Source: Hirschia maritima DSM 19733
GTDB taxonomy: Bacteria > Pseudomonadota > Alphaproteobacteria > Caulobacterales > Hyphomonadaceae
Direction: 5' to 3'
Assembly (NCBI RefSeq): GCF_000378345.1
Contig: NZ_KB899548.1
Span: forward strand, 62,001 to 126,000
Length of the DNA stretch: 64,000 nt
Both the position numbers and the translations under genes were made by a program. This document shows positions 26,031-57,642 of the stretch, in pieces. The notes beneath the pieces were generated by a model. The model saw only the letters and a list, made by a program, of their open reading frames with translations. It was not told the origin of the DNA and made no database searches. Position 1 is the stretch's first letter, and every line of letters starts with the position of its first letter.

Positions 26031-28238
26031 ATGAACCTTACACAATTCTCCTTTGAAGTAGGCGATAACGGCGTAGCTCTAGCTAAATTTGATGCACCAG
26101 AGCGTTCCATGAACACACTTACAAAAGCTGCAAATGAAGATATTGCAGCTATTGTAAAAGAAGTAATTGAAAACGAAGCTATTAAAGGTTTGGTTTTCAC
26201 TTCGGGTAAGAAATCCGGTTTCTGTGCCGGAGCAGATCTTGGTGAAATGACAGGTCTTTTGGCGTTGGCACAAAAGGCTGAAACTCCTGCTGAAAAAGAA
26301 GAGGTCTTCAACCTCGCATTCGGCATCAACAAGCTTTTCCGTGAAATGGAAACATGCGGTAAGCCGGTTGCTATTGCAATCAATGGTCTTGCCATGGGTG
26401 GTGGATTGGAGCTTGCACTAGCTTGTCACTACCGCATTGTTGCAGATGATCAGCCAAAGCTTCGTCTTGCGCTTCCTGAAGGTAAAATCGGTCTTCTACC
26501 TGGTGGTGGTGGTACACAGCGTCTGCCTCGTTTGATGGGTATTCAAGCCGCTGCTCCATACCTATTACAAGGTAAGGGAATGAAAGCTCAAGAAGCAGTG
26601 GCAATGGGAGTATGTCACGCGACTGCACCAACTGCTGAGCTTGTTGAAAAAGCAACTGAATGGGTGCTTGCTAACCCGAATGCAAAAGCGCCATGGGACC
26701 AAGATAAATTCAGAGTTCCTGGTGGAGTGCCAAACCAGCACCCGGGTGCGACTCAAGTATTGATGATGGGTAATGCCATGATCGTGAAAGAGACACACGG
26801 TAACTACCCAGCACAAAAGAACATTCTTTCTTGTGTGTATGAAGGGCTTCAGCTTCCGCTTGATTTAGGTCTAAAGGTTGAAAGTCGCTATTTCGCAAAA
26901 ACGGTAGCAACACCTGAAGCGCAGGGCATGGTACGCACATTGTTCCAATCTCTGCAGGATCTTTCTAAAGGTGCATCACGTCCTGAAGGTGTCCCAAAGT
27001 ACGAAATCAACAAAGTTGGTGTCGTGGGTGCTGGATTGATGGGGGCTGGTATTGCTTATGTACAAGCTGCTGCGGGTATTCCGACAGTTCTTGTAGACGT
27101 AAGCCAAGAGTCAGCTGATCGCGGTAAGGATTATTCTAAGCGCATCGTCGATAAAGCTGTTAAGCGCGGTAAGATGACACAAGAAAAAGCAGATGCTCTT
27201 CTTGGATTGATTACACCTACAACAGATTATGATCAGCTCAATGGTTCTGACTTGATTATCGAAGCGGTATTCGAGAACCCGGAATTGAAAGCTGAAATCA
27301 CAAAGAAATGTGAAGCTCAAATAGCTGATACAGCTGTAATGGGGTCAAACACTTCTACGCTTCCAATCACAGGTCTTGCTGAAGCTTCTGATCGTCCAGA
27401 CAATTTCATCGGTATCCACTTCTTCTCTCCAGTTGAGAAAATGGGTCTTGTTGAAATCATTATGGGAGAGAAGACGTCTCAAGAGACACTCGCTAAGGCG
27501 ATGGACTATGTGTTGAAGATTAGAAAAACACCTATCGCTGTAAATGACTTCCGTGGTTTCTATACATCACGCTGTTTCAGTACATACACGCATGAAGGTA
27601 TTACAATGTTAAGCGAGGGTATTGCACCTGCTATCATTGAAAACCTCGGTCGTCAGTCTGGAATGCCAATGGGGCCATTGGAAGTTTCTGATAGTGTTGG
27701 TCTTGATACTGGTCTGAAGATTGGTCGCCAAATGGCTGCCGCTGAAGGTGTTGATTATGAGGCAGACCCTCTTGGCGCGCTAACAGCATGGATCGTTGAA
27801 GAAAAAGGCCGTGTTGGTCGTAAAGCTGGTCAAGGTTATTACGATTACAACGAAAAAGGTAAGCCGTCAGAAATTTGGAAAGGTTTGTCTGAGCGTATCG
27901 AAGTGAAAACAACTGAGGTTTCACTTGAAGAACGTGAAGAGCTTATCAAGCGTCTTCTTATTCGTCAGGGTATCGAAGTGGCTCGCTGTTTCGAAGAAGG
28001 CGTGATCACAGATGCGCGTGATGGTGATGTTGGTTCTATCCTCGCTTGGGGCTTTGCGCCTTACACAGGTGGAACAGTTTCATACATCGATCTGAAATGG
28101 GGTGTTGCCGCATTTGTTGCTGAAGCAGACCGTTTGGCAGATGCTTATGGTGAGCGTTTCCGCCCGGGTGCCATGCTTCGTGAAATGGCTGAAAAGGGTG
28201 AGACATTCTACCAAAGGTTTCCTCCCGCTGGTCACTAG
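26031..28238 (+). CDS. fadJ: 3-hydroxyacyl-CoA dehydrogenase/enoyl-CoA hydratase, FadB/FadJ-type
   Basis: This is the bifunctional alpha subunit of beta-oxidation, 735 residues. The N-terminal crotonase domain (about 1-190) has the oxyanion motif around GAMGGGLEL-type sequence (NGLAMGGGLELALA) and the GKIGLLPGGGGTQ stretch. The NAD-binding domain begins near 325 with KVGVVGAGLMGAGIA. The dehydrogenase histidine is in GIHFFSPVEKM, followed by two C-terminal 3HCDH domains. The ATG at 26031 is chosen because GGAGG stands seven bases before it, directly after the thiolase stop. A strong terminator follows, closing the operon. Confidence 0.94.
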   Translation: MNLTQFSFEVGDNGVALAKFDAPERSMNTLTKAANEDIAAIVKEVIENEAIKGLVFTSGKKSGFCAGADLGEMTGLLALAQKAETPAEKEEVFNLAFGINKLFREMETCGKPVAIAINGLAMGGGLELALACHYRIVADDQPKLRLALPEGKIGLLPGGGGTQRLPRLMGIQAAAPYLLQGKGMKAQEAVAMGVCHATAPTAELVEKATEWVLANPNAKAPWDQDKFRVPGGVPNQHPGATQVLMMGNAMIVKETHGNYPAQKNILSCVYEGLQLPLDLGLKVESRYFAKTVATPEAQGMVRTLFQSLQDLSKGASRPEGVPKYEINKVGVVGAGLMGAGIAYVQAAAGIPTVLVDVSQESADRGKDYSKRIVDKAVKRGKMTQEKADALLGLITPTTDYDQLNGSDLIIEAVFENPELKAEITKKCEAQIADTAVMGSNTSTLPITGLAEASDRPDNFIGIHFFSPVEKMGLVEIIMGEKTSQETLAKAMDYVLKIRKTPIAVNDFRGFYTSRCFSTYTHEGITMLSEGIAPAIIENLGRQSGMPMGPLEVSDSVGLDTGLKIGRQMAAAEGVDYEADPLGALTAWIVEEKGRVGRKAGQGYYDYNEKGKPSEIWKGLSERIEVKTTEVSLEEREELIKRLLIRQGIEVARCFEEGVITDARDGDVGSILAWGFAPYTGGTVSYIDLKWGVAAFVAEADRLADAYGERFRPGAMLREMAEKGETFYQRFPPAGH

Positions 28239-55221: not shown

Positions 55222-56360
55222 AGACGAGACGAGTCATAGAAATGGCTAGTGCGATTGAAGCTAGCTTATCAAAAGCTGCGTCCAATAAAGGGGCGCAGTT
55301 AATTCAGCCGGCAAATATTTTGCCAGCATCAATATTGCTGGAACTGACAGGGGAAAGCGTAAGGGGACGCTTGTGCAGCTTCACAGCTCCAGACGGAGAA
55401 GAATATTGTATGCGCCCAGACATGACTGCGCCAATCGCTTTGGAGGTTGCGCGGGGTAATTTAGATGCAAAGCGGTATTTGTATTCCGGCGCTGTGTATC
55501 GATTTCCTCAAGCTGGATCGGGCGACGAGATTGAATTTGATCAAATCGGCTTTGAGTGGTTTGCTAAAAAGGGTGGTTCGAAAGAAGAGGCTGAGGGAGT
55601 TGCATTAACGCTCGATACTTTAGCATCAACTGGCGTGTCAGATGCTGAGCTGCGTTTTGGTGATAGTGCTTTGTTTTTCGCACTCATCGATGCTCTAAAA
55701 TTGAAGGCTCCGTGGCCCGATCGATTGCGTAAGGCATTTAATCGTAAACGAGGGCCTCGGGAACTCATGCAATCTGCTGAAGGAGCTGCGCAACGTTCAC
55801 CCCTTGCATCTGCGTTGAGCGGCTTAAGCGAAAAGGAAGCGTGTGAAGCTGTTGAGGAAGTGTTCGCCGTTTCTGGAATTTCTGCAGTTGGTGGACGAAC
55901 CGCTGATGATGTTGCGCGCCGTTTACGTTCACTATCTAAATTTGATGGTGAAGAGATAAATGATAAAGCAAAAACTGCGATCAATGCATTTTTAGATATC
56001 AAAATGCCTGCACGAAAAGCTATTGATGAAATCGCGAATATTGCAAAATTGGCGGGTATAAAATTGGATGATGCTTTGAGCGCTTATGCAGAACGTTTGG
56101 ATATGCTTGAGGGGCTTGGTGCGCCAATGGCGAGCAGCGCAGTATTTGATGCAGAGTTTGGTCGTCGATTTGATTATTACGATGGGCTGGTGTTCAAAGT
56201 TACCCATGAAAAGTTAGGTAAATCACTCCCATTGGCGACTGGTGGTCGTTATGACGGATTGGTGGCGAGTTTATCCGGTGGGAAGGTTTCAACCAAAGCA
56301 TTTGGTGTTGCACTTCGTGCCGATCGTGTTTGCAACGTATTAGATGGGGAGGGGAATTAA
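55218..56360 (+). CDS. hisZ: ATP phosphoribosyltransferase regulatory subunit HisZ
   Basis: This is a HisRS-like paralogue of 380 residues that lacks aminoacylation activity and acts as the regulatory partner of HisG in the first step of histidine synthesis. The class II core is recognisable (MRPDMTAPIALEVARG, YSGAVYRFPQ, DYYDGLVFKV, LATGGRYDGLV), while the C-terminal anticodon-binding domain is missing. Its ATG overlaps the hisS stop as ATGA, and its stop overlaps the hisG ATG as TAATG. Translation of the three genes is thus probably coupled. Confidence 0.93.
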   Translation: MKTRRVIEMASAIEASLSKAASNKGAQLIQPANILPASILLELTGESVRGRLCSFTAPDGEEYCMRPDMTAPIALEVARGNLDAKRYLYSGAVYRFPQAGSGDEIEFDQIGFEWFAKKGGSKEEAEGVALTLDTLASTGVSDAELRFGDSALFFALIDALKLKAPWPDRLRKAFNRKRGPRELMQSAEGAAQRSPLASALSGLSEKEACEAVEEVFAVSGISAVGGRTADDVARRLRSLSKFDGEEINDKAKTAINAFLDIKMPARKAIDEIANIAKLAGIKLDDALSAYAERLDMLEGLGAPMASSAVFDAEFGRRFDYYDGLVFKVTHEKLGKSLPLATGGRYDGLVASLSGGKVSTKAFGVALRADRVCNVLDGEGN

Positions 56361-57310
56361 TGAGTAAATTAGTCCTCGCAATTCCTTCTAAAGGCCGCTT
56401 GAAGGAGCAAACTGATAAATACTTTGCGGAAGCTGGTTTCAAATTAAAGCAAATCGGTGGTGATCGCGCCTACAAAGCAGAGCTAAAAGGCGTGGAAGGT
56501 GTGGAAATGCGCCTCATGTCGGCAAGTGAAATTGCCCGCGGAGTTTTGAATGGCGAAATCCACCTTGGTGTAACAGGGGAAGATTTGCTGCGGGAGAAAG
56601 CTCCCCGCAAAATGGAAGATGATGTGCATCTTCTAAAAGCACTAGGTTTTGGGCACGCCAATTTGATTGTTGCTGCTCCCCAAAGCTGGATTGATGTTGA
56701 GACTATGGCTGATCTTGATGAGGTCGGTGCTCAGTATCAGGAAAAAAATGGCCGCAGGATGCGAGTGGCAACAAAGTATTTAAGGCTCGCTCGAGAGTTT
56801 TTTACGCAAAAAGGGGTTGGTCACTATCGCATTGTTGAAAGTGCGGGGGCAACTGAAGGAGCTCCTGCCGCTGGAAGTGCCGAACTTATTGTTGATATTA
56901 CTTCCACTGGATCGACCTTGGTGGCCAATGGATTGAAAATCATTGCAGACGGTCAGATCTTGGCATCGGAAGCTCAATTGGCAGCGAGCAAAAACGCTGA
57001 CTGGAATGAAGAGACATTGGGTACTTTAAGAGCACTGTTAGACAATATCGAAGCAAGGCAGCGTGCAAAGGAGCTATGCTCTGTAAAATTTCACGGCAGT
57101 ATCGGCGAATCTGCATTGCAAGACATTTTCAGTATGAGAGGAGCTCGAGTTTTTCCGAATGGGGAGGCGTATTGCCCTCAACAAGATGTTCAGAATGTGT
57201 CGCGAAGGCTTGCCCAGGCGGGAGCAGCGCCTGTTAGTGTTCAAAAATTAGATTATATATTTGAACCTGAAAACGTTGTTTTTGATAGTTTTTTTAAGGG
57301 TATCACGTAG
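56360..57310 (+). CDS. hisG: ATP phosphoribosyltransferase HisG (extended)
   Basis: This is the first enzyme of histidine biosynthesis, condensing ATP and PRPP. The catalytic domain occupies about 1-225 (LAIPSKGRLKEQT at the start, the PRPP-binding DITSTGSTLVANGLK near 190-205). A C-terminal extension of about 85 residues (ARQRAKELCSVKFHGSIGES onward) does not look to me like the ACT-like domain of long HisG. At 316 residues it is longer than the usual short HisG that pairs with HisZ. The ATG at 56360 overlaps the hisZ stop. Cytoplasmic. Confidence 0.94.
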   Translation: MSKLVLAIPSKGRLKEQTDKYFAEAGFKLKQIGGDRAYKAELKGVEGVEMRLMSASEIARGVLNGEIHLGVTGEDLLREKAPRKMEDDVHLLKALGFGHANLIVAAPQSWIDVETMADLDEVGAQYQEKNGRRMRVATKYLRLAREFFTQKGVGHYRIVESAGATEGAPAAGSAELIVDITSTGSTLVANGLKIIADGQILASEAQLAASKNADWNEETLGTLRALLDNIEARQRAKELCSVKFHGSIGESALQDIFSMRGARVFPNGEAYCPQQDVQNVSRRLAQAGAAPVSVQKLDYIFEPENVVFDSFFKGIT

Positions 57311-57358
57311 GGGAAGACTGAATTCCAAAGTTTTTTTAATAAAAAAGGTCAAATTATG

Positions 57359-57387
57359 TTGACGCCCATGCAATTTTGAACAATAAA
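57359..57387 (+). promoter_or_regulatory. sigma-70-type promoter of putative small RNA
   Basis: TTGACG (57359-57364) is followed after 17 bp by AATAAA (57382-57387). It lies just past the hisG stop and points at a stretch that ends in a strong terminator and contains no reading frame. Confidence 0.5.
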
Positions 57388-57393
57388 GTATGC

Positions 57394-57483
57394 ATAACCG
57401 CAATGCGGTTGCGTTTCGGGGAGGAAACGTTCTTAGAAGACCCTGACAAAGGCGGTGAGCATAGTACTCACCGCCCTTTTTTT
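57394..57483 (+). ncRNA. putative small RNA downstream of hisG
   Basis: A stretch of about 90 nt has its own promoter-like sequence and ends in a rho-independent terminator. It can form three hairpins: AACCGC-AAT-GCGGTT (57396-57410), CGTTTC-GGGGAG-GAAACG (57412-57429) and the terminator stem. The second hairpin displays GGGGAG in its loop, resembling either a Shine-Dalgarno mimic or the GGA-loop hairpins bound by CsrA/RsmA proteins. No start codon or coding frame is supported. I do not recognise an Rfam family. Confidence 0.5.
57451..57483 (+). terminator. rho-independent terminator after hisG/putative sRNA
   Basis: GGCGGTGAG (57451-57459) pairs perfectly with CTCACCGCC (57467-57475) around a 7-nt loop, followed by C and seven T residues. 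It is 140 nt beyond the hisG stop, which is far for hisG alone. Confidence 0.9.
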
Positions 57484-57642
57484 GTGCAAAATTCAATGAT
57501 TAAAACTTATGCAAGGTTAACAGGCTTGTTGGAGGTGTTAATTCTTGACTAGTCGACCATGTGTTTTTTGGTAAGCCGATAGCATTGATTAACCAATTTG
57601 ATCTATTCCTTACGATATTTGGTGTGTTTTTGAGGAAATATT

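What the first reader, a model, noticed from the sequence alone, without database searches (positions are those of the whole stretch)
57359..57483. Candidate small RNA gene with a GGGGAG-loop hairpin after hisG
A 17-bp-spaced promoter, about 90 transcribed bases without any reading frame, three consecutive hairpins and a perfect terminator with seven T residues make a complete sRNA gene layout. The middle hairpin, CGTTTC-GGGGAG-GAAACG, exposes a purine-rich loop. Such a loop could titrate CsrA-type proteins or mimic a ribosome binding site. I recognise no described family.
Basis: partly seen in the sequence, partly recalled or inferred. Interest (0 to 1): 0.6.

Follow-up and report, generated by a model that had tools for sequence, protein, structure and literature searches.

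The report
Divergent CrfA-like sponge small RNA
This is a small RNA gene beside hisG that looks like an overlooked relative of CrfA, a known starvation RNA of Caulobacter that soaks up other regulatory RNAs, and its bait sequence fits three such RNAs in the same genome.

Summary
The sRNA gene layout at 57359-57483 is real. It is not an unknown family: it is a divergent homologue of CrfA, the carbon-starvation sRNA of Caulobacter that sponges alphaR8 sRNAs SisA-D (PMC12559287). Rfam misses it, 19.3 bits against a cut-off of 38. A model built without rows from the window's family finds it at 37.8 bits, E 5.5e-8; next best in the window 12.1 bits. hisG lies upstream in 81 of 131 distinct loci with enough sequence, including 16 of 16 loci of the window's family and a Caulobacter vibrioides MAG. 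A TTGAC box lies 57-87 nt before the loop in 167 of 167 loci. The genome has Hfq, no detected CsrA, and three alphaR8-like RNAs; the loop and 3' arm can pair 15-16 contiguous nt with each. The complementary 11-mer occurs at five places: these three RNAs, this gene, and antisense to the Shine-Dalgarno of one MaoC-family gene. The loop thus mimics a ribosome binding site, as bait for anti-Shine-Dalgarno sRNAs. Expression and sponging are inferred. Known kind, wider range.

The parts
57359..57364 (+). -35 box TTGACG of the sRNA promoter
   Evidence: TTGAC lies 57-87 nt upstream of the loop in 167 of 167 distinct related loci with at least 120 nt upstream
57382..57387 (+). weak -10-like hexamer AATAAA, 17-nt spacer
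   Evidence: 4 of 6 to TATAAT; not listed by the scan
57394..57483 (+). CrfA-like sRNA, about 90 nt, predicted start to end of T run
   Evidence: Fold; leave-family-out models match 57392-57485: R2 33.8 bits, R3 37.8 bits, E 5.5e-8
57396..57410 (+). hairpin 1, AACCGC-AAU-GCGGUU
   Evidence: relatives have AACYGC-UUCG-GYRGUU at about the same place
57411..57430 (+). hairpin 2 with exposed loop GGGGAG (57418-57423)
57418..57433 (+). predicted alphaR8-pairing site GGGGAGGAAACGTTCT
   Evidence: 15, 15 and 16 contiguous pairs (G-U allowed) with three alphaR8-like RNAs of the same genome; corresponds to CrfA G49-C63, protected in probing (PMC12559287)
57438..57444 (+). linker motif AGACCCT, shared with 10 of 12 rows of the family alignment
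   Evidence: Alignment A2; L015 and L016 differ
57451..57483 (+). intrinsic terminator, 9-bp stem, 7-nt loop, seven T
   Evidence: compensatory changes in relatives
56330..57310 (+). hisG (ATP phosphoribosyltransferase), usual upstream neighbour
   Evidence: NCBIfam TIGR00070 over its cut-off; synteny; TTG start as listed, true start may lie further in

Best explanation
57394-57483 encodes a compact, divergent CrfA orthologue that acts as an RNA sponge. Shown here by sequence: homology (leave-family-out models, shared hisG neighbour, shared -35 box), a loop predicted to be exposed, and 15-16 nt complementarity to three alphaR8-like sRNAs of the same genome, one of them next to an FGase gene as sisA is. 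Inferred: it is transcribed from its own promoter, probably under starvation; on Hfq the loop and its 3' arm pair with the UUUCCUCCC core of the alphaR8 RNAs and so free the mRNAs whose Shine-Dalgarno sequences those RNAs would block. The loop works because it imitates such a Shine-Dalgarno sequence.
For: Permissive Rfam scan aligns the whole CrfA model with the core identical. Leave-family-out models: R2 33.8 bits, E 2.4e-7, next 12.7; R3, with three rows of uncertain or Hyphomonadaceae title also removed, 37.8 bits, E 5.5e-8, next 12.1; 16 of 16 loci of the window's family at E 3.4e-7 or better with R2 and 4.9e-8 or better with R3. BLAST within the family: G001 E 1.1e-50, G011 E 5.1e-10. hisG upstream on the same strand in 81 of 131 loci, 16 of 16 of the window's family and C. 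vibrioides MAG L088. TTGAC in 167 of 167. alphaR8 over cut-off in G000, adjacent to PF05013 FGase. Hfq present. Complementary 11-mer at five places, reversed control none. 15 or more contiguous pairs for 21 of 22 alphaR8 RNAs in 17 genomes. Duplex energy reached by 1-2 of 300 shuffles of the sRNA for the alphaR8 partners. Published CrfA/SisA mechanism uses this loop.
Against: Below Rfam's gathering score, with another family (L20_leader, 20.5 bits, on the opposite strand) scoring higher, and RF01527 did not report this genome at E 0.01. Rows of R1-R3 were chosen by the core, so their scores lean on about 19 nt; the pairing counts used only alphaR8 RNAs with the exact 10-nt core. The third alphaR8-like RNA scores only 23.2 bits with RF00519, below five other places without the 11-mer. 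No expression data. 50 of 131 loci lack hisG upstream. G001 keeps only 12 contiguous pairs with one of its three alphaR8 RNAs, so the UUCU extension is not shown to co-evolve. Predicted minimum-energy folds form the full core stem in 145 of 165 and a 5' hairpin in 150 of 165 loci, not in all. G002, same genus, has alphaR8 but no CrfA-like hit.
Confidence: 0.83

Rival explanations
1. It is the 3' end of the hisG mRNA: no terminator lies between hisG and this structure, so the hairpins may just end the his transcript, or be released from it as a 3'-UTR-derived sRNA.
For: No plus-strand terminator-like site was found between the hisG stop (57310) and 57451; hisG is the usual neighbour.
Against: A -35 box lies 57-87 nt before the loop in 167 of 167 loci, while 50 of 131 loci have no hisG upstream. 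CrfA is studied as an independently induced sRNA.
Confidence: 0.1
2. It titrates CsrA through the GGA in the loop.
For: GGA lies in the loop of a strong hairpin.
Against: No CsrA gene found in the genome, while three of 14 control genomes ring. Conservation extends to the 3' arm of the hairpin (rows were selected by that core).
Confidence: 0.02
3. It is CrfA-like but acts directly on mRNAs by base pairing, not as a sponge.
For: CrfA was first proposed to act directly on an mRNA (as reported in PMC12559287).
Against: Besides the three alphaR8-like RNAs the exact 11-mer complement lies only at this gene itself and antisense to one Shine-Dalgarno; shorter or imperfect sites were not searched. Direct action was contradicted for CrfA.
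Confidence: 0.05

Closest known systems
CrfA of Caulobacter crescentus (Rfam RF01527)
   Same: GCGUUUCGGGGAGGAAACG hairpin as second stem-loop; -35 box at a near-fixed distance; terminator; hisG upstream in Caulobacter loci such as L030, L088, L159; alphaR8 partners.
   Different: 19.3 bits against a cut-off of 38; about 24 nt shorter before the loop; terminator lacks the UAUCCCC loop seen in 13 of the 17 rows of alignment A1 that I take as Caulobacteraceae.
alphaR8 sRNAs (SisA-D, MmgR; Rfam RF00519 suhB)
   Same: Predicted partners, not relatives; three in the genome share CGUUUCCUCCC.
   Different: They carry the anti-Shine-Dalgarno core, the window RNA its complement. The window RNA's own weak RF00519 hit (15.4 bits against 41) I take as chance.
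QrrX of Vibrio
   Same: A sponge of sibling sRNAs (as described in PMC12559287).
   Different: No sequence comparison was made.

Membership tests
CrfA (Rfam RF01527 as curated) | Score at or above the gathering cut-off of 38 bits | tested here: not met
   19.3 bits, E 0.21 (341 bases, all families); none at gathering
CrfA homologue (broader sense) | Found by a model built without the window's family | tested here: met
   R3: 37.8 bits, E 5.5e-8, next 12.1. R2 gave 33.8 bits but held L126, titled Hyphomonadaceae by its depositor
CrfA homologue (broader sense) | Same neighbour, hisG upstream on the same strand | tested here: met
CrfA homologue (broader sense) | Second stem-loop G/A-rich and complementary to the alphaR8 core | tested here: met
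   published site
CrfA homologue (broader sense) | Genome encodes Hfq and alphaR8 partners | tested here: met
CrfA function | Induced by carbon starvation | not testable with these tools
   Needs RNA data
CrfA function | Hfq-dependent sequestration of alphaR8 RNAs | not testable with these tools
   Needs probing and genetics
CsrA-titrating RNAs (CsrB type) | A CsrA protein in the genome | tested here: not met
   0 matches at E 0.001

The most novel reading that the evidence does not exclude
The CrfA-alphaR8 sponge circuit is ancestral to the order Caulobacterales. Across at least four families nearly everything but a roughly 12-nt Shine-Dalgarno-mimicking bait, the -35 box and often the hisG neighbour has turned over, and parts of the window's family and a fifth family lost, replaced or never had the sponge while keeping alphaR8 RNAs.
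Probability: 0.65. Interest if true: 0.5.

Novelty: new member of a known kind. Interest (0 to 1): 0.4.

Why it matters
It extends a starvation sponge RNA, studied in Caulobacter crescentus in the papers seen, to families where Rfam's model does not reach its cut-off. It gives natural presence/absence contrasts, even within one genus, for asking what the sponge is needed for, and a short bait sequence from which targets can be predicted.

Tried and rejected
Rfam at gathering threshold: nothing in the window. Other permissive hits: L20_leader on both strands (20.5 and 18.0 bits against 58.7, resting on the terminator hairpin; the first scores above CrfA), DUF2815, suhB, P11, DapZ, PreQ1, snoZ107_R87, RgsA: all far under their cut-offs; rejected. 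CsrA titration: rejected. Coding: the plus frame's ATG is not kept in G001; the minus frame is open in G000 but broken in G001. Order-wide weak R1 hits, E 1e-6 to 1e-2, best hit of 64 of the 189 genomes with a hit: not counted as CrfA-like, nor examined one by one; weak hits in G277 and G136 and in G007 overlap alphaR8 hits on the same strand. Class-wide: matches at 12 loci (11 outside the order, one second hit in G061) viewed: 11 lack the GGGGAG loop, one, L283, has it; my first look had shown the wrong stretch for four of them. Co-variation of the UUCU extension with alphaR8: not supported, G001 breaks it. Both-sided changes that one search counts in hairpin 1 come from misaligned G000/G001 rows; not used. 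A first pairing script lost six genomes and one further alphaR8 through too strict a terminator filter; rerun without it. The chemotaxis-receptor neighbour was found only in the window's own locus. The original CrfA paper is not held.

Full report
What is there. Positions 57359-57483 hold a TTGACG box, a weak AATAAA, and a predicted RNA of about 90 nt with two hairpins, a linker and a strong terminator ending in seven T. It folds at -33.4 kcal/mol, z -3.61, 0 of 200 shuffles as stable. Upstream is hisG; downstream a gene resembling chemotaxis receptors, with family scores under the curated cut-offs. A BLAST of 57340-57500 finds one copy in the genome.

What family. Rfam at its cut-offs finds nothing in the window. 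A permissive scan of 57300-57640 gives CrfA, whole model, 19.3 bits against a cut-off of 38, with CGUUUCGGGGAGGAAACG identical; L20_leader on the opposite strand scores 20.5 bits against 58.7. Titles name Caulobacter, Phenylobacterium, Brevundimonas, Asticcacaulis, Terricaulis, Maricaulis, Hyphomonas, Caulobacteraceae, Caulobacterales or Hyphomonadaceae, or only Alphaproteobacteria, Proteobacteria or bacterium. RF01527 itself matches 78 of 299 sampled genomes of the order at E 0.01, 51 over its cut-off, and does not report the window's genome.

Homology tests. I built R1 from 40 loci, R2 from 31 loci after taking out the nine rows from the window's family, f1 as the tool numbers it, and R3 from 28 after also removing L126 (titled Hyphomonadaceae) and two rows of vague title. 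R2 finds the window locus at 33.8 bits, E 2.4e-7, next best 12.7; R3 at 37.8 bits, E 5.5e-8, next best 12.1. All 16 f1 loci score at least 33.8 bits with R2 and 37.8 with R3, and alphaR8 loci at most 14.5 and 16.3. Rows were selected by the core, so the core carries much of the score. Two features outside the core agree. TTGAC lies 57-87 nt before the loop in 167 of 167 distinct loci with at least 120 nt upstream. hisG lies upstream on the same strand, its aligned end at most 448 nt from the loop, in 81 of 131 distinct loci with at least 1300 nt upstream, in 16 of 16 f1 loci and in a Caulobacter vibrioides MAG. Both counts come from core-bearing loci, made distinct by a 140-nt key, so close relatives count apart. 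The 50 without hisG include Brevundimonas and Asticcacaulis records and family f3 loci (titles). The rule of -35 plus 36 nt puts the start 47 nt before the loop in L030 and 23 nt here; published residues G49-G54, which I take to be the GGGGAG loop, imply 48, so the window RNA is about 24 nt shorter there. In minimum-energy folds of 165 loci, 145 form the full core stem, 150 a 5' hairpin of at least 4 pairs and 165 at least 6 pairs in the 3' part. Among 8 f1 rows the terminator shows compensatory changes, the core does not vary except one G-U, and hairpin 1 shows one-sided changes; the both-sided ones counted there come from misaligned rows.

Range. In the order sample, R1 reaches E 1e-6 in 125 of 299 genomes: 60 in f2, 41 in f3, 17 in f4, 7 in f1, 0 in f5 (numbers sampled per family not tabulated; strict filters). 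In a class-wide sample of 385, 14 reach E 0.01: four inside the order, ten outside, best outside 1.2e-4; of 12 such matched loci viewed (11 outside), 11 lack the loop sequence and one has it. In 35 f1 genomes searched more closely, 16 have E 3.1e-13 or better; the third genome of the window's genus, G002, has no hit at E 0.01.

Mechanism. In C. [quoted passage not shown] read: first of 11 parts of the text, section 7 whole, first of two parts of the discussion, and passages). CrfA has the highest enrichment in a table of Hfq-bound sRNAs, possibly overestimated as its authors say (PMC11005374, passages). In the window's genome Hfq is present and CsrA was not found. RF00519 finds one alphaR8 over its cut-off, 41.2 bits, and two weaker ones carrying the core, 31.7 and 23.2 bits; five places without the 11-mer score between these two, so the third rests on its core, its terminator and its likeness to the second. 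The first lies next to an FGase gene, PF05013 E 5.5e-67, the linkage reported for sisA and most alphaR8 genes. In the order sample 229 of 299 genomes have an alphaR8 hit over the cut-off, 251 at E 0.001.

Specificity. CGTTTCCTCCC occurs five times in the 3.34 Mb genome, the reversed control none: three alphaR8-like RNAs, the antisense strand of the window sRNA, and the antisense strand of GGGAGGAAACG lying 3 nt before the ATG of a MaoC-family gene between acyl-CoA and short-chain dehydrogenase genes. That looks like regulators, bait and a candidate target. The window RNA can form 15, 15 and 16 contiguous pairs with the three. Over 17 genomes (16 of f1, one of f3) with 22 alphaR8 RNAs, all having the exact 10-nt core, 21 reach 15 or more and one, in G001, 12. 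The window RNA would do better than G001's own on that one, so no co-evolution is claimed. Duplex energies, which ignore internal structure, are reached by 1-2 of 300 shuffles for the alphaR8 partners and by 5 of 300 for the antisense of the MaoC site, which is not known to be transcribed.

Limits. No expression data. Sponging, starvation induction and the MaoC target are inferences from homology and complementarity. The hisG mRNA may also end at this terminator. Searches of the held papers for CrfA with Hyphomonas gave none and with Maricaulis one iron-response paper, seen in the listing only; most subscription papers are not held, so I do not claim that the wider range is unpublished.

Noticed in passing
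L295:1501-1517 (G000:C1:127264-127274): A MaoC-family gene between acyl-CoA and short-chain dehydrogenase genes has the bait sequence GGGAGGAAACG 3 nt before its ATG: a candidate alphaR8 target and sponge-relieved gene.
   Followed up: partly
G000:C1:501206-502685, minus strand (L296, L297): Two alphaR8-like RNAs about 1.4 kb apart share similar upstream sequence; G001 has a closer pair about 0.3 kb apart (L245, L248).
   Followed up: no
G002 (same genus as the window): It has alphaR8 hits but no CrfA-like hit at E 0.01: a possible loss or replacement inside one genus.
   Followed up: partly
alignment A1, e.g. L018, L020, L039, L054, terminator loop: 13 of the 17 rows that I take as Caulobacteraceae carry UAUCCCC in the terminator loop, C-rich and able to pair with the bait loop; absent in the rows of the window's family.
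   Followed up: no
L283:1501-1592 (G326:C1:2279511-2279602): Outside the order, CGTTTCGGGGAGGAAACG lies just before what looks like the start of an oxidoreductase gene (by eye), a possible alphaR8 site.
   Followed up: no
window 28218-28226: TTTCCTCCC on the plus strand, the only other place of this alphaR8 core 9-mer in the window besides the antisense of the sRNA.
   Followed up: no
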